From contig JAFGWI010000327.1 of assembly GCA_016937215.1 (NCBI GenBank), positions 1 through 35,248 of the forward strand: DNA of 35,248 nt. Reading direction: 5' to 3'. Below the pieces are notes generated by a model that saw nothing but the letters and a program-made list of their open reading frames with translations, was not told the DNA's origin and searched no databases. A program made the translations under genes and the position numbers. The number at the start of each line of letters is the position of its first letter. Position 1 is the stretch's first letter. The stretch is from Spirochaetales bacterium (GTDB lineage Bacteria > Spirochaetota > Spirochaetia > SZUA-6 > JAFGRV01). Positions 65-35,248 of this stretch are shown in pieces.

Positions 65-207
65 CTTTATCATAGGGGATTGAAGCGGAAACCCCACAGC
101 AGACCGGATGAAGGATTTTATATTGAATTGCCTATTCAGCTTTTGACTTTTTTTCTGACTCTGCGAGGAGTTGAAGCGAAAAGCCCGGCCTGAAAGCCCC
201 GGGGTCA

Positions 208-296
208 GCCATTCCAAATATAAACCATTTTGTATAAAAATATATTTCAACCGATGGTTTTTGACTGCATTAATAATAGTTTATATTTGGAATGGC
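208..296. repeat. 89-bp segment with 18-bp perfect terminal inverted repeats
   Basis: The ends are GCCATTCCAAATATAAAC (208-225) and its exact reverse complement (279-296), flanking about 53 AT-rich bases. The form resembles a miniature inverted-repeat element. Part of it (274-308, minus strand) recurs at 35131-35165 with 32 of 35 bases identical. No target-site duplication could be assigned with confidence. Confidence 0.6.
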
Positions 297-320
297 CACT
301 GCACCGAACGAAAATAAAGC

Positions 321-358
321 GCAATTCGTAATATTTGTACTCAAATATTACGAATTGC
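321..358. repeat. 17-bp perfect hairpin
   Basis: GCAATTCGTAATATTTG (321-337), a 4-base loop, then its exact reverse complement (342-358). It lies inside repeat copy A, next to the 89-bp inverted-repeat segment. There is no T-run, so it is more likely part of the repeat than a terminator. Confidence 0.6.
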
Positions 359-467
359 TGCCCTGGGCTTATCAGGCAACGCCCAAAAAAATCAACCAAA
401 GAGCCTTCACAAGATTCAAATAGGTTCAAAATTTTGAGTTTTGGCAAAGCACAGTGCTCCATTTCCA

Positions 468-5033: not shown

Positions 5034-6752
5034 CTAAAACAGAAAATATCGCTGGGCCAGAGGAAGCTCAGACATGGGTTCGCAAACGAGAAGTTCACCA
5101 TCAGCCCTTACCTCATAGGTCTCGGGATTAATTTCCATCACCGGCAATGCATCGTTTAATGGCAAATCCTTTTTTGTGACGGATCTGACATTTTTCAAGG
5201 CCACAGCCCGCTTTTGAAGGTCCAACATTTTCGGAACAGCACGATCCATAGCAGCCTGGCTCAAAAATGTCAAACCGGTTGAATACTTGGCGCGACCATA
5301 AGAACCAAACATCCTTCGTCCGTAAACCGGCTGAGGTGTCGGGATGGACGCATTAGCATCACCCATAGCCGAGAAAGCTATAAATCCCCCTTTGATAACA
5401 ATTTCAGGATACACACCAAAAAAAGCAGGGTCCCACAATGTCAAATCAGCTATTTTTCCGACTTCAACCGAACCAATGTAATGATCCATACCATGGGCAA
5501 TAGCCGGGCAAATCGTATATTTGGCCACATAACGCTTGATTCTGAAATTATCATGCTGGGCTGGGTCCTGAGGCAAACTTCCTCTCTGCACTTTCATTTT
5601 ATGTGCAGTCTGCCAAGTCCTGGTGATAACTTCACCAACACGACCCATAGCCTGGCTATCACTGGACATTATACTGATTGCACCCAAATCATGAAGAATA
5701 TCCTCGGCAGCAATGGTTTGAGGCCGAATTCGGCTGTCAGCAAAGGAAACATCCTCAGGTATGGAGGGGTCAAGATGATGACATACCATAAGCATATCTC
5801 TATGTTCAGGAATTGTATTAATCGTAAAGGGGCGTGTAGGATTTGTGGAACTCGGCAACACGTTCATTTCTCCGCATACCTTTAAAATATCCGGCGCATG
5901 ACCGCCACCGGCGCCTTCAGAATGAAAGGTATGAATAGTACGACCCTTAAAAGCAGCTATTGTGTCTTCGACAAATCCGGCTTCATTCAAGGTATCAGTA
6001 TGAATGGCCACCTGAAGCCCGGTTTTCTCAGCCACATCCAAACAGCAATCAATGGCTGCCGGTGTCGTTCCCCAGTCTTCGTGAAGTTTGAGCCCGCACG
6101 CACCAGCCTCAACCTGTTCCATAAGGGCGTCGGGCAATGAACTGTTTCCTTTTCCAAAGAAACCCATGTTGGTGACAAAATCTTCAGAAGATTCGAGCAT
6201 CCGATGAATATTCCAGGGCCCTGGAGTACAGGTCGTCGCAAGAGTGCCTGTGGCAGGTCCTGTGCCACCGCCCAGCATCGTGGTCACACCGCTCAACAAA
6301 GCGGTTTCAATCTGCTCCGGGCAAATAAAATGAATGTGCAGATCCAGGGCGCCTGCAGTAAGTATTTTACCTTCGCCTGCTAGCACTTCAGTGCCTGGGC
6401 CGATCTCCATACCTCGGGTGATATTTTCCTGAACACCCGGATTACCGGCATTACCGATAGCCGAAATGCGCCCCTCTTTTACGGCAATGTCAGCCTTATA
6501 AATACCCGTGTAATCGATGATTAAAGCGCTGGTAATCACGAGGTCCGGTGCTCCTGATTTTGAAGTTGCCCGAGGGTCCTGACCCATACCGTCTCGAATG
6601 ACTTTTCCGCCGCCAAACTTCGATTGATCGCCGGCAACGGTCAAATCCTTTTCAACTTGGAGCACAAGAGCTGTATCTCCAAGCCTCATTCTATCGCCAG
6701 TGCTTGGCCCATACATATCAGCATAATTTTTTCCGAATATTTTAATTCCCAT
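5034..6752 (-). CDS. ureC: Urease catalytic subunit alpha
   Basis: Nickel metalloenzyme subunit that hydrolyses urea to ammonia and carbamate. The 572-residue length matches the family. The sequence shows HIHFICPEQ (nickel-1 histidines), GLKLHEDWG with the carbamylated lysine at about residue 222, [24 protein letters not shown], the mobile-flap MVCHHLDP, and [12 protein letters not shown] carrying the nickel-binding aspartate. The start at 6752 ([21 protein letters not shown]) is preceded by GGAGGAG, embedded in the last codons of ureB. The frame stays open to 6815, but those extra residues read through ureB in another frame. All catalytic residues I can place are present, so the enzyme should be active once matured. 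Confidence 0.97.
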
Positions 6753-7149
6753 GGCCAGCTCCTCCAAAACCCCTTTCAGATGCTTTTTTAAACGCCTTTT
6801 TTCTGACACTTTCACTATTTAATGAACCATTTACAAGCCCGTTCAAGCCATAGCAATAACGTTCGCCTTTGATATCTATCAGGTCCACATTCAAACTCAT
6901 ACCTGGTTCAAAACGCATAGCAGTGCCCGAAGGAATAGCCAAACGCTTTCCATAAGCAAGGGTTCTATTAAAATCCAAAAATTTATTAACCTCAAAAAAA
7001 TGAAAATGACTCCCGACCTGTACTGGCCTGTCACCCCGATTAACAACGGTTAAAGTGACGTTTTCACGGTCACTTAATAAATCCTTTTCCTTATCTGATA
7101 CCCATATTTGGCCTGGAATAATTGAATTTTTATCATGATCGCCTTTCAT
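6742..7149 (-). CDS. ureB: Urease subunit beta
   Basis: Structural subunit of the urease (alpha-beta-gamma)3 assembly. The 135 residues include the family core [60 protein letters not shown], and the C-terminal GLVNGSLN. It is a separate gene rather than fused to ureA, unlike the Helicobacter arrangement. The last codons overlap the ureC start by 11 bases and contain its ribosome-binding site. The N-terminal MKGDHDKNS extension is a little longer than usual. Confidence 0.95.
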
Positions 7150-7157
7150 AGATCCTC

Positions 7158-7457
7158 CTATTGTATAGGTTCATGCACAGTAACCAGTTTGGTTCCATCG
7201 GGAAAGGTAGCTTCCACCTGGACACTGTGTAGCATTTCCGGAACCCCTTCCATCACTTCGCTTCGGGAAAGAATATCAGTACCACGATTCATAATATCTA
7301 CTACCTGCTTTCCTTCCCGAGCCCATTCCAGAATTTGACTTGTTATAAGTGAAACAGCTTCTGGATAATTCAACAGAATACCTCTTTCCTTTCGGTCCCG
7401 AGCTATCATGGCTGCCAGGGAAATAAGCAATTTTTCCCGTTCTCTTTCAGTAAACAT
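7158..7457 (-). CDS. ureA: Urease subunit gamma
   Basis: Small structural urease subunit of 99 residues, the normal length. It begins [26 protein letters not shown] and contains [22 protein letters not shown], then [28 protein letters not shown]. The chosen ATG sits one base beyond the stop of the P-II gene, and its ribosome site (AAGGAGGA) lies within the final P-II codons. This ties the two tightly in translation. A longer in-frame reading to 7565 would duplicate P-II sequence and is rejected. Confidence 0.95.
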
Positions 7458-7458
7458 A

Positions 7459-7785
7459 TCACACGTCCTCCTTGGACTTTTCTCCTGTTCTGATAGTGTA
7501 TTCTTCCCCAACATCAACGACAAAAATTTTTCCATCGCCAATATTCCCGGTTTGTGCGGTCTCAATCACGATTTTTATTATTTCTTCGTAATCCTTATTT
7601 TGACAAACGATAATTACCATTTCTTTGGGAAGCTTATCATAAATCATATTTCCGATATGTATTCCCCGTTGCTTACCTCGACCTCTAACACTCATCTCCG
7701 TCAATGAGCTGAATCCCTTGCTGTCCAAAACTGTGGTTACATCCTTAAGCTTTTCAGGTCTAACAATTGCAAAAATCATCTTCAT
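7459..7785 (-). CDS. P-II family nitrogen regulator, NifI1-like T-loop
   Basis: Trimeric signalling protein of the P-II family, 108 residues, expected to bind ATP, ADP or 2-oxoglutarate. The B-loop TGNIGDGKI (79-87) and C-terminal IRTGEK (98-103) are intact. The T-loop reads [22 protein letters not shown] (35-56, two pieces joined). Compared with GlnB it is about four residues shorter and lacks the tyrosine (Tyr51) that is uridylylated in enteric GlnB. The GRGKQ-G...YD-LPK pattern matches the archaeal and anaerobe NifI1 group. It lies between urtE and ureA, with AGGAGG upstream, and no nitrogenase gene is in view. Its likely target is the Urt transporter or urease expression, which is inference. 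Cyanobacterial P-II is known to bind UrtE. Confidence 0.9.
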
Positions 7786-7932
7786 ATTCTGGCCTCCTTT
7801 TCACAATTCAATAAAATTTATTCTCTGCCATTCACCGAATTCAAACACAGTTTACCGATCACCTGTCATATTCCTTGACTTAAAACAAATATACAAAAAA
7901 CTCCCGTTTTGCCTGCCATATTTTTTAGTGTT

Positions 7933-7998
7933 GCCTGACAAGCCCGGGGCTTTCAGGCCGGACTATCCGGATAGCACCTGTACAGCAGGTGGCTTTTT
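7933..7998 (+). repeat. Intergenic repeat family, copy B (compact)
   Basis: GTTGCCTGACAAGCCC followed by GGGGCTTTCAGGCCGGAC. The arms GCCTGA+AAGCCC (7933-7945) and GGGCTT+TCAGGC (7947-7958) form a nearly perfect stem matching copy A without its insertions. A second hairpin, CACCTG...CAGGTG, and a T-rich run (GGCTTTTTCTTTT) follow. It occupies most of the 285-base space between urtE and the P-II gene and may affect read-through or mRNA processing. Confidence 0.6.
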
Positions 7999-8070
7999 CT
8001 TTTAGTAAACTAATTTTCATTTGTTTACATCTCAACAAACCAATAACACATTATCAATACAGAATTAATT

Positions 8071-8772
8071 TCAAATTGAAATATACTTTTGAACCTCAAT
8101 TCCTTCCAGGTTTCCCATATTATCATGCATCACAATTTCCCCATGATCCATAACATAACAAAAGTCTCCAAGCCTGAAAGCCATTTCCATATATTGTTCA
8201 ACTAATATAATAGTAATCTTTTGCTGCTCTTTAATGGCACGTATGGCATACTCAATACTCTGAACGATTGATGGCTGTATGCCCTCGGTTGGTTCATCAA
8301 ATAAAATCAATTTTGGATCAAGTATCAACATACGGGCAATTGCCAGCTGCTGTTGCTGGCCGCCGCTCAAATCACCCCCTTTTCGTTTATACAATTTTTT
8401 GAGTTCTGGAAACATAATAAAAATATCATCAGGTATTTCTTGATTTTTTATGGATCGGGCTGCCAGACCCAAAATTAAGTTTTCATAAACAGTCAAATGG
8501 GGAAAAATTTCTCGCCCCTGGGGAACATAGGCGATACCTCCATGGGCCCTTTTTTCTGTGGGCCATTGAGTAATATTTGCTCCATCATATTCTATGGAAC
8601 CAGATTCAACCTTGATTAAGCCCATCAAGGTTTTTAATAAAGTTGTTTTTCCAACGCCGTTTCTCCCCATCAACGCAACGACCTGCCCCTTATCTGCCTT
8701 TAGAGAAACTTGATGAAGCACCTGAGTAGTACCATAGCCACTAACAATAGAATTAACTTGCAGCAGACTCAT
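8071..8772 (-). CDS. urtE: Urea ABC transporter ATPase UrtE
   Basis: Second nucleotide-binding subunit of the high-affinity urea importer, on the cytoplasmic face of UrtBC. Of 233 residues, Walker A is GRNGVGKTT near 37, the signature is LSGGQQQQLAIAR near 135, and Walker B is LILFDEPTEGIQPSIV near 155. The GIQPSI after Walker B is characteristic of UrtE. The start MSLLQVNSIVSGYG has GGAGGT in front and overlaps urtD by 20 bases. The frame is open further upstream to 8811 but duplicates urtD sequence. The UrtE paralogue LivF is the main alternative, but the urease neighbours settle the substrate. Confidence 0.93.
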   Translation of the reverse strand: MSLLQVNSIVSGYGTTQVLHQVSLKADKGQVVALMGRNGVGKTTLLKTLMGLIKVESGSIEYDGANITQWPTEKRAHGGIAYVPQGREIFPHLTVYENLILGLAARSIKNQEIPDDIFIMFPELKKLYKRKGGDLSGGQQQQLAIARMLILDPKLILFDEPTEGIQPSIVQSIEYAIRAIKEQQKITIILVEQYMEMAFRLGDFCYVMDHGEIVMHDNMGNLEGIEVQKYISI

Positions 8773-9520
8773 GTTTACCTCCATCTCGGCCAAGATACAC
8801 ATCGATAACATAGGGATCCTTTTTTACCTTTTCATAGCTACCATCACTTATCACTCGGCCCTCGTGCAAAACAGTAACAGTGCTTGAGAAACGCTCAACA
8901 AACTTCATATCATGTTCAACAACGATAACCGAACAGTCCTTAGCAATTTTTGTTAAAAGAATCCCGGTTTTATCACGTTCCCCTCCAGTCATGCCTGCCA
9001 CAGGTTCATCTACTAATAACAACTTCGGTTTTTGAATAATTGTTAATCCGATCTCGAGCCATTGTTTTTCACCATGCGCCAATTGAGATGCCAGCCAATT
9101 TCGTTTTTCAGTTAAGCCAACTGTTTCCAAAACTTCATCCACTGTTTCGATCGAACCCTTTTGATTATCGAAAAAGGATGAAAACAACTCTCTGTTTTTG
9201 GGAATTGATAATCTTAAATTTTCTTCCACAGTTAGAGAACCAAATACCGAGGGGGCTTGAAATTTTCTGGAAATTCCCGCTTTGCAAATTTTTGAAGGCT
9301 TCATACGTAGTAAATCAAATTCTTCATTATAAAAAACACGCCCCATATCTGGTTTTGTTTTACCGCAAATCACATCCAGCAATGTTGTTTTTCCAGCACC
9401 ATTAGGTCCAATAAGAAATCTCAATTCTCGCTGTTTAATGAACAAATTAACATTATTCAAAGCCTTAAAACCATCAAAACTGACAGACACCGCTTCCATA
9501 TATAAAACATCATTTTTCAT
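8753..9520 (-). CDS. urtD: Urea ABC transporter ATPase UrtD
   Basis: First ATP-binding subunit of the urea importer, 255 residues. It has Walker A GPNGAGKTTLLDV near residue 38, followed by the Urt-typical CGKTKPDMGRV. The signature LAHGEKQWLEIGL replaces the classical LSGGQ, as is usual in UrtD. Walker B LLLVDEPVAGMT is followed by the H-loop VEHDMKFVERF. The gene overlaps urtC by 11 bases and urtE by 20, which indicates coupled translation. Confidence 0.93.
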   Translation of the reverse strand: MKNDVLYMEAVSVSFDGFKALNNVNLFIKQRELRFLIGPNGAGKTTLLDVICGKTKPDMGRVFYNEEFDLLRMKPSKICKAGISRKFQAPSVFGSLTVEENLRLSIPKNRELFSSFFDNQKGSIETVDEVLETVGLTEKRNWLASQLAHGEKQWLEIGLTIIQKPKLLLVDEPVAGMTGGERDKTGILLTKIAKDCSVIVVEHDMKFVERFSSTVTVLHEGRVISDGSYEKVKKDPYVIDVYLGRDGGKHESAAS

Positions 9521-10607
9521 CCACAGCCTCTTTTCTGGAGACTGGGCTTACTAATGTCTTAATCTTTTCAAATAAACTGCCCAAACCTTTTGGTAGAAAC
9601 ATGACTGATAAAATAAAAATAACGCCAAAAACATACCACCATGCATCGGGAAAAGTTTCACTTAAACTTGTTTTAACAATATTCACCACAAATGCGCCGA
9701 TTATCGCACCCTTAAGAGTCCCTCGTCCTCCAATAGCAACCCAGATTGCAATTTCGACCGATGGTAATATCCCCATAGCAGAAGGATTTATTATCCCAAC
9801 TTGCGGAACAAACAAAGCACCGGCGATTCCCGCAATAGCAGCTGACAATGCATAAATAAAGACTTTATAAGAAACCGGATCATAACCCAAAAATTTCAGC
9901 CTGTTTTCACCTTCTCGAATGGCAATCAGGATTCGTCCTGTTTTTGATTGTATCAATAATTTTGAAAGGAAATAAACCAAAAATAGAATTATCACACTGA
10001 TGATATACAAGGCAATTTTCGTTTCACCCTTGTAAAGCGAGAATCCAGCTATGCTTTCAAATCCGGTTATTCCATTTGTCCCGCCTGTATAGGGTTGCTG
10101 CCCGATAAAGAAAATGGAAAGCGATAAAGCCAGAGCTTGCGTTAAAATTGTAAAATAAACGCCTTTGATACCAGAGCGAAATGCCGGAAATCCGATGACA
10201 AGCGAAAATAAAACCGGCACAACAATAACCATTATTATAGTAAAGGCAAAATTCGAAAAAGGCTCCCAAAACCAGGGCAATTTTGTTAATCCGCTCCATG
10301 TCATAAAATCGGCCAAACCCTGAGCTTGAAAATCAGTTGTTTGTGTTTTTAAGTGCATGGCCATCATATAGGCTCCCAGACTGAAATATACACCATGCCC
10401 AAGGCTGAGAATCCCGGTATAGCCCCATAACAAATCAAGACCAAGGGCTACAATGGCATAGGTGACGAATTTTCCAATCAATGCCAACCTGAACTGGCTC
10501 AATGCCAAAGGCATTGTGAGTGCAAGAATAATGACAAAGGTTGTGGTTACAGGAAATTTTTTGCTAATCGATTTATAAAATTTAATAATATTATCAATAA
10601 TTTTCAT
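9510..10607 (-). CDS. urtC: Urea ABC transporter permease UrtC
   Basis: Inner-membrane permease of the urea importer, 365 residues with about nine hydrophobic segments, in the LivM/UrtC fold. Recognisable elements are YAIVALGLDLLWGYTGILSLGHG, the cytoplasmic loop with GRILIAIREGENRLKFLGYD, and VAIGGRGTLKGAIIGAFVVN. It follows urtB by 9 bases with AGGAG before the ATG. The N-terminus includes a short cytoplasmic stretch before the first helix. Confidence 0.92.
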   Translation of the reverse strand: MKIIDNIIKFYKSISKKFPVTTTFVIILALTMPLALSQFRLALIGKFVTYAIVALGLDLLWGYTGILSLGHGVYFSLGAYMMAMHLKTQTTDFQAQGLADFMTWSGLTKLPWFWEPFSNFAFTIIMVIVVPVLFSLVIGFPAFRSGIKGVYFTILTQALALSLSIFFIGQQPYTGGTNGITGFESIAGFSLYKGETKIALYIISVIILFLVYFLSKLLIQSKTGRILIAIREGENRLKFLGYDPVSYKVFIYALSAAIAGIAGALFVPQVGIINPSAMGILPSVEIAIWVAIGGRGTLKGAIIGAFVVNIVKTSLSETFPDAWWYVFGVIFILSVMFLPKGLGSLFEKIKTLVSPVSRKEAVDEK

Positions 10608-10616
10608 TACAAACTC

Positions 10617-11510
10617 CTAATCCAATGCACGTGATTTAAACGTAACAAAACCCTTTGGTTTTAACTGCAGAAAAAGGATAACCACAATAAATACCAGCAC
10701 TTTTCCCATACTGGAGGTTGTAAAAAACTCGAGAAGAGGGCTGATAATTCCCATCATCAATGCGCCTGCAATCGTTCCCGCCAAACTGCCGACACCACCC
10801 ATAACAACCACCATAAAGGCATCTACAATATAATTCTGGCCAGTAGAAGGACCAATGGACCCTAAAAGACTAACAACACAGCCGGCAAGACCAGCCAGAC
10901 CACATCCGATTGCAAATGTTAATGAATCTACCTTACGGGTCTGGATTCCCATGGAAGCGCCCATGGCCCGATTCTGCATGACAGCCCGCATTTTTAATCC
11001 ATTGGTTGTTTTGTAAATATAAAAATACATGACAGCAATAGCGATAATCGCGATCAGAATAATAAAAATTCTGTTATAGGGAAACTGAATCGTATCTGAT
11101 ATTGATATTCCCCCTTTCAGCCAATCGGGACTTCTAACATCAACATTGGACGCGCCAAAAATATTACGGCTGGCTTGCTGAAAAATCAGACTCAGACCCC
11201 AGGTTACCAAAATGCTCTCATAAGGACGGTTATAAAGATGACGAATAATTGACCGTTCAAGTAGAAACCCCAGACCTGCAGCTATAAAAAATGATGCCGG
11301 TATCGCAAAAATAAAGAAAAAATCACCCCACAAACCATAGGTCAGATTTTGAACAAGATAAACACTATAAGCGCCAAACATCATGAATTCGCCATGGGCA
11401 AAATTGATGATCCCCATAATACCGAAAGTAATACTTAATCCCAGTCCTACCAACAATAATATCGAACTCAAACTTAATCCATTAAACAGCTGCATAACAA
11501 AAGTATCCAT
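10617..11510 (-). CDS. urtB: Urea ABC transporter permease UrtB
   Basis: Inner-membrane permease that partners UrtC, 297 residues, LivH/UrtB type. It contains LLVGLGLSITFGIMGIINFAHGEFMMFGAY, then RPYESILVTWGLSLIFQQASRNIFGASNVDVRSPDWL, which is typical of UrtB. The loop MRAVMQNRAMGASMGIQTRKVDSLTFAIGCGLAGLAGC follows. The start chosen (MDTFVMQLFNG) has AAGGAGA at good spacing, and nine further upstream codons read into the leader. It is separated from urtA by a GC-rich hairpin. Confidence 0.93.
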   Translation of the reverse strand: MDTFVMQLFNGLSLSSILLLVGLGLSITFGIMGIINFAHGEFMMFGAYSVYLVQNLTYGLWGDFFFIFAIPASFFIAAGLGFLLERSIIRHLYNRPYESILVTWGLSLIFQQASRNIFGASNVDVRSPDWLKGGISISDTIQFPYNRIFIILIAIIAIAVMYFYIYKTTNGLKMRAVMQNRAMGASMGIQTRKVDSLTFAIGCGLAGLAGCVVSLLGSIGPSTGQNYIVDAFMVVVMGGVGSLAGTIAGALMMGIISPLLEFFTTSSMGKVLVFIVVILFLQLKPKGFVTFKSRALD

Positions 11511-11537
11511 GGCTTCTCCTTTCGATGATAAAACCAA

Positions 11538-11561
11538 GCCCCGGAAATTTTATTCCGGGGC
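11538..11561 (-). promoter_or_regulatory. GC-rich hairpin between urtA and urtB
   Basis: GCCCCGGAA, a six-base loop, then TTCCGGGGC, followed on the minus strand by TTGGTTTTATC. A strong stem with a weak T-rich tail after the binding-protein gene is the usual arrangement for partial termination or 3'-end protection. It would give more UrtA than membrane subunits. That role is inferred from other ABC import operons. Confidence 0.65.
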
Positions 11562-11574
11562 CATACATTTACAT

Positions 11575-12792
11575 TTATCGAGGACCCATAACACCAGGAG
11601 AAATTACTTTCTGATCAGGAGAAATTAATTCTGGATAAGGATCGGGTTTAACAGGACCATCGGTTGCCCAAACAATTTCAAATTGTCCATCAGACTTCAC
11701 TTTGCCGATTTGAACAATCTTCCATGTATGATTATTCGTAGGCTCGATCTTCACCAATCCTTCAGGGGCCATGTATTCAACACCACGAACAGCTTCACGC
11801 ACCTTTGCGACTTCGTAAGAACCTGCTTTTTTAACTGCTTCTGCCCAAAGGTATACCCCAAAATAACCGGCTTCAATCGGATCGTCCGTTACACGATCAG
11901 CGCCATATTTAGTTTTATAGGCTTTAATAAAGGCATCGTTCTCTGAGCTTTCCATGCTCATGAAATAATTCCACGATGCATAATGACCTGCAATATTTTC
12001 AGCACCAATACCTTTGATTTCTTCCTCAGCTATACTCACGCTCATGACCGGAATTTTATCAGGACCAATTCCAGCAGCCTTTAATTGCTTAAAAAATGCG
12101 ACATTACTGTCTCCGTTCAAGGTATTAAAAATGACATCAGGCTCAGCAGCTAAAATCTTGCTGATAACTGTTGTGTATTCAGTATGGCCAAGAGGAGTAT
12201 ATTCTTCAGCAACCATCTCACCACCTTCAGCCTCAAGTTGAAGTTTGATGATTTTATTGGCCGTGCGAGGAAATACATAATCTGAACCAAGGAGATAAAA
12301 CTTTTTAAAGCCCTTCTCTAGCAGCCAGCTAACAGCAGGCATAATTTGCTGATTAGGAGCAGCGCCGGTGTACACGATATTTTTTGACGCTTCGACCCCC
12401 TCATACTGTACAGGATAAAACAAGAGATGATCCAGGTTTTCAAAGACAGGTTTTACGGCTTTGCGGCTGGCAGATGTCCAGCAACCGAAAACAACATTCA
12501 CCTTATCGACCTCTATCATTTTTGTTGCTTTTTCTGCAAAGGTCGGCCAGTCGGAAGCTCCATCCTCTACAACAGGAACAATTTGCTTGCCTAAAAGACC
12601 ACCAGTTTTATTGATTTCGTCAATAGCCAATAAAGTCGCATCCTTAACCGCCACTTCGCTAATTGACATCGTGCCTGACAGAGAATGTAATACACCAACT
12701 TTTATTACATCATTCTTTTTTTCTGAACAGGAGATGAACATCAAACTGATGCCCAACAAAATCAGGAATGAAATTGATAACATTTTTTTCAT
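11575..12792 (-). CDS. urtA: Urea-binding lipoprotein UrtA
   Basis: Substrate-binding component of the urea importer, 405 residues. The N-terminal 21 residues form a lipoprotein signal ending FISC, with acylated Cys22, so the protein is membrane-anchored in the periplasm. The mature part starts with [16 protein letters not shown] and contains [41 protein letters not shown], and [16 protein letters not shown]. These are hallmark UrtA/FmdD-family segments that separate it from branched-chain amino acid binders. The ATG follows GGAGGTGTTTT. A sigma-54-like promoter sits about 30 bases upstream. It is the first gene of the urt-ure array. Confidence 0.94.
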
Positions 12793-19666: not shown

Positions 19667-19858
19667 GGGCGTTTCCCCCTGGCAAGCATTTTTAAATACA
19701 GCTACTGATCATAACAGGCCTGCCAGGGGGTCGGGCTTTCCGCTTAAACTCCTCGCCTGCCCCGGCCATTTAAAAGAACAAAAAACTCAAACATCAAATT
19801 GTATCACCCCTCTTTTCAAGCCAGGCAGGCTGCGGGGTAACGCTCCAATCCCTAACGC
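19667..19858 (+). repeat. Intergenic repeat family, copy C
   Basis: GGGCGTTT (19667-19674), then CCCCCTGGCA (19675-19684) paired with TGCCAGGGGG (19721-19730). CGGGCTTTCCGC follows (19732-19743). After about 97 bases comes the tail CGCTCCAATCCCTAACGC (19841-19858). A second stem pairs GCCTGCC (from 19755) with GGCAGGC (19824-19830). The stretch 19600-20203 holds no gene. The element fills a third of it, and the rest is featureless AT-rich sequence. Confidence 0.75.
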
Positions 19859-20203
19859 GAAAACAGGCGGTTAAAATAAATCAAAACCAAGAACTCTCAG
19901 TGCAAGCCTTTTTGATTCAAAACAAATATTCTCATTTTTGATGCACCCTAGAGCTTTTCCCCATTGCTTAAAAGCCTGAAACAGGCTATATTCCATTATC
20001 AACAAAAATACCCCATTCTTTTCCTGTTATTTTTATTGAAAGGGCTCATTGCTAAAATTCTCATATTTGCATTTAGCAAGCAACAGTAAATTAACCACTT
20101 ATTATTCGGTAATAAGATAATTTATCGGCGATTCTCATGATTCTTGCAAAACCTCTGTTTTACAAGAACATCGAACAATATATTTTTCACAAAGAGGTTT
20201 ATT

Positions 20204-26760: not shown

Positions 26761-27113
26761 TCCTTTTGATAAAGGCAGTTTTGTTGCTTTTCAGCTGATT
26801 TTTTTTCATGTTTTTTGTTGAATCAGCCTGGTGATATTTTTAGAAAAAAGGCATCGGGGCTTTTACAAGTGGCAACCGGGGCAGCATAAGCGTCAGGGAT
26901 TGGAGCGGCAGCCGGCCTTTTTTTCAAAAAAGGCCGGCTGAAGAGCGGGGGCACGGTAATTCCGTGCCCTCGCCTTTGAAACCGCGCAAAGCCCGGCCCG
27001 GGGGAATGACAGCCTGTACATGAGGTAATTGACTCTGAAAAATCAAGACTTAACCTATATTCTGGGATCTGTCATTCCCCCGGGAGACGCCCTGAATATC
27101 AAAAAAAATTACC
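26761..27113. other. Intergenic region mostly filled by repeat copy E
   Basis: No gene. It contains several perfect hairpins, including CAGCCGGCCTTTTTT...AAAAAAGGCCGGCTG (26909-26940) and GGGCACGGTAATTCCGTGCCC (near 26950-26970; 9-bp stem). The former could double as a terminator for the kinase gene because T-runs lie inside it. Confidence 0.5.
26890..27092 (-). repeat. Intergenic repeat family, copy E
   Basis: Read on the minus strand: GGGCGTCT (27092-27085), CCCGGGGGAATGACAG (27084-27069), a 56-base loop, its exact complement (27012-26997), CGGGCTTTGCGC (26995-26984), two more hairpins, and the tail CGCTCCAATCCCTGACGC (26907-26890). Order and spacing match copy C, but the stem sequence is unrelated. 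This copy ends 21 bases before the gpsA promoter. Confidence 0.75.
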
Positions 27114-35130: not shown

Positions 35131-35165
35131 TTCGGTGCAGTTACAATTCCAAATATAAACTATTA
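35131..35165 (+). repeat. 35-base repeat shared with the left end
   Basis: TTCGGTGCAGT, four variable bases, then ATTCCAAATATAAACTATTA. It matches minus-strand 308-274 at 32 of 35 positions, so the two copies are inverted relative to each other. The partner inverted arm seen at 208-225 is missing here. Confidence 0.65.
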
Positions 35166-35189
35166 GTATATGTTCAGCTAATGAATTTT

Positions 35190-35248
35190 GGGCGTTGCCT
35201 GCTTCCATTCCATTCCAGCAGGCCGGGCTTTCCGCCACTTCGCTGTCG
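35190..35248 (+). repeat. Intergenic repeat family, copy F (cut by window end)
   Basis: GGGCGTTGCCTGC, 15-base loop rich in TTCCA repeats, GCAGGCCGGGCTTTCCGCC. The stem is GCCTGC/GCAGGC. The 3' tail block would lie beyond the window. Confidence 0.65.

What the first reader, a model, noticed from the sequence alone, without database searches (positions are those of the whole stretch)
76..384. Modular intergenic repeat with conserved flanks and compensating hairpins
At least five copies share, in one orientation, GGGCGTY, a hairpin, CGGGCTTT.CGC, and in three full copies a tail CGCTYCAATCCC about 76-97 bases later. The hairpin arms differ completely between copies (GCCTGC/GCAGGC; CCCCCTGGCA/TGCCAGGGGG; CCCGGGGGAATGACAG and its complement; GCCTGATAAGCCC/GGGGCTTTCAGGC) yet remain complementary. 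That is covariation, so structure is selected or is copied by the mechanism. I recall similar GGGCGTT...CGGGCTTTCCGC palindromes in Bacteroidetes genomes but cannot name a described family. It could be a mobile hairpin DNA, a structured RNA, or a RAYT-type substrate.
Basis: partly seen in the sequence, partly recalled or inferred. Interest (0 to 1): 0.75.

Follow-up and report, generated by a model that had tools for sequence, protein, structure and literature searches.

The report
Mobile three-armed DNA hairpin repeat
The repeats are scattered copies of a short DNA element, related to a sequence catalogued as the orphan bacterial RNA "Flavo-1", whose reverse strand is predicted to fold into a three-armed shape and which has likely spread through bacterial genomes and plasmids as mobile DNA moved by an enzyme not yet identified.

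Summary
The repeat is real: four copies in the window, about 42 in the genome. (2) On the opposite strand P4-P3 is Rfam Flavo-1 (RF01705), an orphan "sRNA"; window copies fall below Rfam's cut-off, and Rfam's model lacks P1 and P2. Covariation is strong (93 double changes, 24.8 in shuffles, at most 35 in slid controls). Copies occur in Bacteroidota and Spirochaetota genomes (up to 150, the scoring cap), 84 Bacteroidales plasmid records and two viral contigs read. Copies end at the P1 stem, lie in unrelated flanks, follow T-rich sequence and show no target duplication: best read as non-autonomous mobile DNA. In this genome one subfamily also rides in a MITE. RAYT is not supported: Y1 transposases are absent from 5 of 12 carriers searched; reverse transcriptases and Rpn nucleases do not track either. 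The mover is unknown; no clean empty site was found; transcription was not testable here.

The parts
74..384 (-). Element copy 1 (the finding). P2 loop of 164 nt with nested hairpins; P1 3' arm lost
   Evidence: R1 hit 74-199(-), 38.7 bits; Flavo-1 model hit at 65-194(+), 31.6 bits, E 1.7e-4; sequence
365..377 (-). copy 1, P2 5' arm GCCTGATAAGCCC
   Evidence: sequence
188..200 (-). copy 1, P2 3' arm GGGGCTTTCAGGC
   Evidence: sequence
171..187 (-). copy 1, first conserved strand CGGGCTTTTCGCTTCAA (P4 5' arm plus internal loop)
76..91 (-). copy 1, second conserved strand TTTCCGCTTCAATCCC (internal loop plus P4 3' arm)
   Evidence: sequence
19667..19859 (+). Element copy 2, complete: P1 GCGTT/AACGC, P2 CCCCCTGGCA/TGCCAGGGGG, P4 GGG/CCC, P3
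   Evidence: R1 40.6 bits; minimum-energy fold of the reverse strand gives P1, P2, P4, P3
19625..19662 (+). hairpin plus nine-T run (terminator-like) just 5' of copy 2
   Evidence: sequence, counted by hand
26889..27092 (-). Element copy 3: P1 GCGTC/GACGC, P2 CCCGGGGGAATGACAG and its complement, divergent P3
   Evidence: R1 hit 26889-27014(-), 21.3 bits, E 0.006; parse
35190..35248 (+). Element copy 4, cut by the contig end: GGGCGTT, P2 GCCTGC/GCAGGC, CGGGCTTTCCGC
   Evidence: R1 15.5 bits, E 0.23, 3' truncated; sequence

Best explanation
The repeat is a high-copy, mostly intergenic element whose reverse strand is predicted to fold into a three-way junction around the Rfam Flavo-1 core, and it likely spreads as non-autonomous mobile DNA placed after T-rich sequence by an enzyme not yet identified. 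Shown: the layout P1 (GCGNN/NNCGC), P2, P4 (GGG/CCC and other paired triplets) and P3, with a nearly fixed internal loop between P4 and P3; covariation in P1, P4, P3 and inside the loop; unit ends at the P1 stem; unrelated flanks; T-rich left flank; no target duplication beyond chance; bursts in some genomes; presence on plasmids and in viral contigs. Inferred: a protein reads the shape and the fixed internal loop, so the stems may drift as long as they pair; the folded strand is the Flavo-1 strand, as single-stranded DNA in replication or transfer; the enzyme acts in trans. In the window genome one subfamily has also been carried inside a MITE.
For: P4: 84 of 86 copies fully Watson-Crick, swapped-partner mean 47.9, maximum 57 of 2000; P1 pairs 82-84 of 86 (15 of 101 anchor pairs dropped for lack of a GGGC start). 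34 representatives: 95.5% of cells paired, 93 double changes vs 24.8 +/- 4.4, 0 of 500 shuffles (rows pre-filtered for P1). Ends: 19 copies of G222/G302 share sequence mostly from about -34 to +113..+118 with unrelated flanks. Two Bacteroides plasmid sites with no other similarity share an 88-bp, 88.8% match that is the 83-bp element plus 3 and 2 nt (the two plasmids have the same replicon type). Left 6 nt 58% T vs 24% right; end repeats of 4 nt or more 8 of 149 vs about 6 expected. Copy number: G068 86 and 96 by two models vs 1-5 in three congeners; Spirochaetales MAGs 147-150 of 150 scored. 84 plasmid records with a match. Reverse strand shows all four tested helices in 42 of 78 folds vs 17 (RNA), 48 vs 22 (DNA). 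MITE units: 9 with both ends, 7-9 bp duplication in 5, of which two have a mismatch and one is a run of A.
Against: No transposase tracks the copies. No precise empty site was obtained: of 10 G222/G302 sites with a matching left flank, 9 are filled in both (one judged by spacing only) and 1 lacks the element, but with unrelated sequence beyond it. At three plasmid sites no listed record shows a clean absence; one record holds only the 3' part (only three alignments read). Folding energies of short copies are not exceptional against shuffles, and base composition may explain part of the strand difference. Stem wobbles do not settle the strand. In g44, 18 of 19 copies have an upstream gene reading into them, which could mean a transcript role.
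Confidence: 0.6

Rival explanations
1. A structured non-coding or 3'-UTR RNA (Flavo-1 as catalogued), duplicated many times, acting as RNA.
For: Rfam lists Flavo-1 as an sRNA and the core matches it; a review counts it among abundant sRNA families (PMC9029176, passages). The Flavo-1 strand folds better. The conserved internal loop on that strand would be A.G/G.A mismatches around pairs, usual in RNA (recalled). 18 of 19 g44 copies follow a gene end.
Against: Passages of PMC9723704 (F. psychrophilum transcriptome) say Flavo-1 hits lie sense or antisense and many outside transcribed regions. Copy number differs about 20-fold or more within a genus. Gene orientation is mixed in G000 (upstream gene reading in at 15 of 40).
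Confidence: 0.2
2. A RAYT (REP-associated Y1 transposase) substrate, a REP-like element.
For: Intergenic palindromes with a conserved foot. PMC6006769 (passages read) reports Bacteroidetes TnpA-REP subclass 2.6 genes flanked by 'atypical secondary structures' copied elsewhere.
Against: PF01797 is absent from G222, G302, G404, G410, G414 (5 of 12 carriers searched) and present in G001-G004, with almost no copies. Of 20 Y1 loci read, one had an element nearby (L096). No GTAG/GTGG foot; a three-way junction, not a hairpin. Subclass 2.6 was not searched apart.
Confidence: 0.07
3. An attC-like site-specific recombination site: folded single-stranded DNA read by shape, recombining copies and moving neighbouring genes.
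For: Shape conserved and stem sequence free, as in attC (recalled). G414 has three same-sense copies separated by small gene groups (PIN, Macro, PDDEXK). In 3 of 10 G222/G302 sites the left side is collinear and the right side unrelated, breaking at the element; one site has the element inverted.
Against: P1 often reads GTT...AAC, the reverse of attC RYYYAAC...GTTRRRY (recalled), and varies freely. No integrase seen by eye among the 25 largest neighbour clusters (not scanned with Pfam). Ordinary homologous recombination between copies explains the breaks.
Confidence: 0.08
4. Only passengers of ordinary MITEs or insertion sequences, with no mobility of their own.
For: 9 units with GTATTTGTTTAGC-like ends in G000, 5 with a 7-9 bp duplication; lineage-specific extended flanks in Spirochaetales MAGs.
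Against: g44 and plasmid copies end at P1 with no such ends; the core stays conserved across two phyla while carriers differ.
Confidence: 0.05

Closest known systems
Flavo-1 RNA (Rfam RF01705)
   Same: Same P4, internal pairs and P3 on the reverse strand; G068, Flavobacteriaceae, Sediminibacterium and Polaribacter copies pass the cut-off
   Different: Rfam's model has unpaired ends: no P1, no P2, no defined boundaries; window copies 1 and 2 score 31.6 and 19.2 bits and a plasmid copy 32.6 against a cut-off of 42; described as an RNA, not as mobile DNA
REP/REPIN elements with RAYT (TnpA-REP)
   Same: Short intergenic palindromes, high copy, patchy, single-strand folding
   Different: No GTAG foot, three-way junction of about 70-320 bp, no tracking Y1 transposase
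CGTC-tagged REPs (PMC3733652)
   Same: In Bacteroidetes and Spirochaetes among others, no dedicated transposase (passages)
   Different: 20-40 bp single hairpins with a CGTC foot; no conserved internal loop
MITEs
   Same: Non-autonomous, high copy; one G000 subfamily is inside a MITE
   Different: Core lacks target duplications; its only terminal inverted repeat is the variable 5-bp P1; arms differ completely between copies
Integron attC sites
   Same: Shape conserved while stem sequences vary (attC features recalled)
   Different: Different end motifs, no integrase seen nearby, no regular cassette arrays apart from the G414 cluster

Membership tests
Flavo-1 (RF01705) | Score at or above the gathering cut-off of 42 bits | tested here: not met
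   Window copies: none at gathering; copy 1 31.6 bits, copy 2 19.2 bits. Met by relatives L259, L518, L538, L542, L544, not by L129 or the plasmid copy
Flavo-1 (RF01705) | P4 / internal pairs / P3 with the two conserved loop strands | tested here: met
   24 G000 matches at E <= 1e-3, 0 of 14 control genomes
Flavo-1 (RF01705) | It is a functional RNA | not testable with these tools
   no RNA-seq; one published transcriptome found no consistent strand (passages)
RAYT/REP | Cognate Y1 transposase in the genome | tested here: not met
   PF01797 absent from 5 of 12 carriers; G000 itself has 2
RAYT/REP | GTAG/GTGG tetranucleotide foot | tested here: not met
   alignment A1: ends are GGGC ... GC
MITE | Target duplication at the core's own ends | tested here: not met
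   seen only in 5 of 9 of the larger G000 units
attC site | RYYYAAC ... GTTRRRY ends | tested here: not met
   P1 types GCGTT/AACGC, GCGCG/CGCGC, GCGAA/TTCGC and others; the attC motif is recalled
attC site | An integron integrase in the genome | not tested
   only the 25 largest neighbour clusters were looked at by eye
Retro-element (RT-copied) | A reverse transcriptase in carrier genomes | tested here: not met
   RVT_1: no match in 11 of 17 carriers; matches in G410, G414, G427, G430 over and G068, G324 below the cut-off

The most novel reading that the evidence does not exclude
A new class of mobile element: three-way-junction DNA recognised by shape plus a small fixed internal loop, inserted after T-rich sequence without target duplication by an unidentified enzyme that is neither a Y1/HUH transposase nor a reverse transcriptase; the Rfam 'RNA' Flavo-1 is its recognition core.
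Probability: 0.3. Interest if true: 0.8.

Novelty: new variant of a known kind. Interest (0 to 1): 0.62.

Why it matters
It turns an orphan RNA family into a testable mobile element with defined ends, gives it a larger structure and shows it at high copy in Spirochaetota and on Bacteroidales plasmids, and warns that covariation alone can make mobile DNA look like a non-coding RNA. High-copy hosts and small gut plasmids offer simple systems in which to find the enzyme.

Tried and rejected
Movers tried: Y1 transposase; Rpn/PDDEXK_2 (near copies in six loci of five genomes, but absent from carriers G102, G306, G404, G410, G079, G334 and present in G001, G003, G004); reverse transcriptase. None tracks. 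Genomes are incomplete, so single absences are weak. A serine recombinase beside the plasmid copy has no relative among the ORFs of the 596 sequences held. Clustering of neighbours within 1.5 kb: the 25 largest clusters printed were judged by eye, not scanned; none looked like a recombinase, one was the Rpn family. Strand from wobble pairs: undecided. P4 counts are contaminated by mis-anchored g44 copies (CCG/CCC, AAT/CCC) and are not used; its copies were also required to pair in P1. Searches are earlier parsers with wrong registers for some copies; one search replaces them. G068 against congeners gave no precise empty site. Paper searches for motif letters, for repeats in Bacteroidetes/Flavobacterium, for attC in Treponema and for Flavo-1 listed no paper that describes it as mobile; Flavo-1 with RNA is in 3 papers of that library, of which I read passages only.

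Full report
Observation. The window holds four copies, not five. The genome (G000, 5.09 Mb, 87.7% complete) has 44 motif matches against one for the reversed control; I judged 42 of 44 real by eye. The R1 model lists 30 in G000 at E <= 1e-3.

Structure. Reading copies side by side showed that the outer ends pair (GCGTTA/TAACGC, GCATTA/TAATGC, GTGTT/AACAC). In G068 the GGG after P2 and the CCC before the 3' end change together (GTG/CAC, ACG/CGT, AGG/CCT). To test this without choosing copies by pairing, I anchored on the two conserved strands, leaving out the P4 letters, and took the 5' end from GGGC plus P2 pairing only: 101 anchor pairs, 15 dropped for lack of such a start, 86 kept. P4 is Watson-Crick at all three positions in 84 of 86 (shuffled mean 47.9, maximum 57): GGG/CCC 63, GTG/CAC 8, GCG/CGC 7, ACG/CGT 4, AGG/CCT 2. 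The five P1 pairs are standard in 82 to 84 of 86. Then 34 loop-trimmed representatives were aligned (rows had been filtered for five of five P1 pairs, so P1's 100% in the next count is by selection). Count: 95.5% of cells paired, 93 double changes against 24.8 +/- 4.4, none of 500 shuffles; slid structures give at most 35; the number of further pair types is not above shuffles (22 vs 23.0). P2 was counted apart (33 of 34 with at least four of five pairs; arms swapped between copies 6.9; the register was chosen by pairing, so this is biased upward). More distant copies show A-T, C-G and G-C beside T-A at the second internal pair, by eye.

Identity. Rfam's own structure line holds P4, two T-A pairs, the central G-C pairs and P3, with unpaired ends. 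So P4 and P3 were known; P1, P2, the unit's ends and the copy-number pattern are what is added here. The Flavo-1 model at E <= 1e-3 gives 24 matches in G000, copy 1 among them, none over the cut-off, and none in 14 control genomes.

Which strand folds. The minimum-energy fold of the reverse strand of copy 2 shows P1, P2, P4 and P3. Over 78 copies of at most 230 nt all four tested helices appear in 42 reverse-strand and 17 forward-strand RNA folds (48 and 22 with DNA parameters). Composition may contribute, and short copies are not exceptional against shuffles. Wobble pairs do not decide it.

Spread. Exact 16-letter pattern: 17 of 392 genomes of the phylum, one control match in all; by eye 12 of the 17 hold true elements, the rest matches inside genes or unclear. 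R1: 78 of 392, 33 of 167 genera (strict filters, 12 candidates scored per genome). R1 counts (150 candidates scored per genome): 147, 148 and 150 in three Spirochaetales/Spirochaetia MAGs, 79 in F. caeni, 96 in G068, 50 in G334, 1 in S. salmoneum. Many matches of one Spirochaetales MAG (JAISQU) lie near contig ends, as near-identical repeats do in assemblies. Plasmids: 84 records with a match, 130 places, Bacteroides, Phocaeicola, Parabacteroides, Butyricimonas; 31 records cover at least 80% of the query, which included flanks. Phage records: 2. Viral contigs: 2 clear elements among the loci read (L129, L166). The tools gave no name for G000; its phylum was not established.

Mobility. In two close genomes, G222 and G302, copies share sequence from the GGGCG end to the CGC end and then diverge, apart from orthologous sites and pairs with longer shared flanks such as L253/L254 (1.3 kb to the right). 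An 83-bp element on 33-kb Bacteroides plasmids has an 88.8% relative on 98-kb plasmids at a site with no other similarity, and the match ends 3 and 2 nt beyond the element; both plasmids are typed rep_cluster_1702, so they are not wholly unrelated. Over 149 flank pairs the left six bases are 58% T, the right six 24% T; end repeats do not exceed swapped flanks. G222 versus G302: 10 sites with a matching left flank (an eleventh, L254, had none); 9 filled in both, L255 by spacing only; 1 without the element in G302 (L246/L579); at one (L248/L082) the element is inverted; at 3 (L251, L253, L257) the sequence right of the element is unrelated; at L066 the other contig ends. One orthologous pair has 9 changes clustered in the P3 tip against 27 in 2645 flanking bases, which looks like conversion between copies (inference); the other pair tested has 2 against 44. 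In G000 one subfamily sits in MITE units with GTATTTGTTTAGC-like ends: 9 units with both ends, 7-9 bp duplications in 5 (two with one mismatch, one a run of A), none seen in 4.

Partner. PF01797 is missing from G222, G302, G404, G410 and G414 and present in G001-G004; G000 has 2. PF12784 is missing from six carriers. RVT_1 has a match in 9 of 23 genomes searched, and none in G000, G222, G302, G334, G404, G102, G428, G429, G432, G436, G437. Genomes are incomplete, so single absences are weak; together they argue against any of these as the common mover. No recombinase was seen to recur beside copies (by eye).

Function. Copies in g44 follow gene ends (18 of 19), those of the mixed other set mostly (16 of 21 with a known upstream gene), those in G000 do not (15 of 40) (ORF-based). 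A published F. psychrophilum transcriptome saw Flavo-1 hits on either strand and often outside transcripts (PMC9723704, passages); Weinberg et al. 2010 (PMC2864571, table passage) list Flavo-1 as a candidate RNA without cis-regulatory signal. I therefore commit to mobile DNA, at 0.6, with the enzyme and the single-strand step inferred.

Noticed in passing
window 6302-6596 (+): Rfam 5_ureB_sRNA hit (77.9 bits) antisense to the urease alpha gene (5034-6815, -); probably coding conservation rather than an sRNA.
   Followed up: partly
L029, L015, L231, L235, L006, L093 (G000): MITE with GTATTTGTTTAGC-like ends and 7-9 bp target duplications; one unit (L093 2122-2336) lacks the element.
   Followed up: partly
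L253, L254, L265, L089, L237, L372: Rpn/PDDEXK_2 nuclease genes near elements in five genomes; in G302 element plus Rpn gene (1.3 kb) occurs twice with different left flanks.
   Followed up: partly
window about 280-310 and about 35140-35175: A TTCGGTGCAGT..ATTCCAAATATAAACTATTA-like stretch occurs inside the P2 loop of copy 1 and just upstream of copy 4: another repeat.
   Followed up: no
L012 and L024 (G000): A second shared stretch (CCCACTTTCCG.ACTAAAATAGTAATTTC..ATATTATAGAGAAATAGAAAAGGC) beside elements.
   Followed up: no
L372 (G414) 7355-11813: Three same-sense elements separate small gene groups (PIN, Macro-domain, PDDEXK_2, winged-helix genes) beside glycosyltransferase genes.
   Followed up: partly
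L595 2500-3170 (B. fragilis plasmid Q1F2-p2): Compact 78-bp element whose first base is the last base of a serine recombinase stop codon; 31 of 32 matching plasmid records, this one included, cover at least 80% of the query region.
   Followed up: partly
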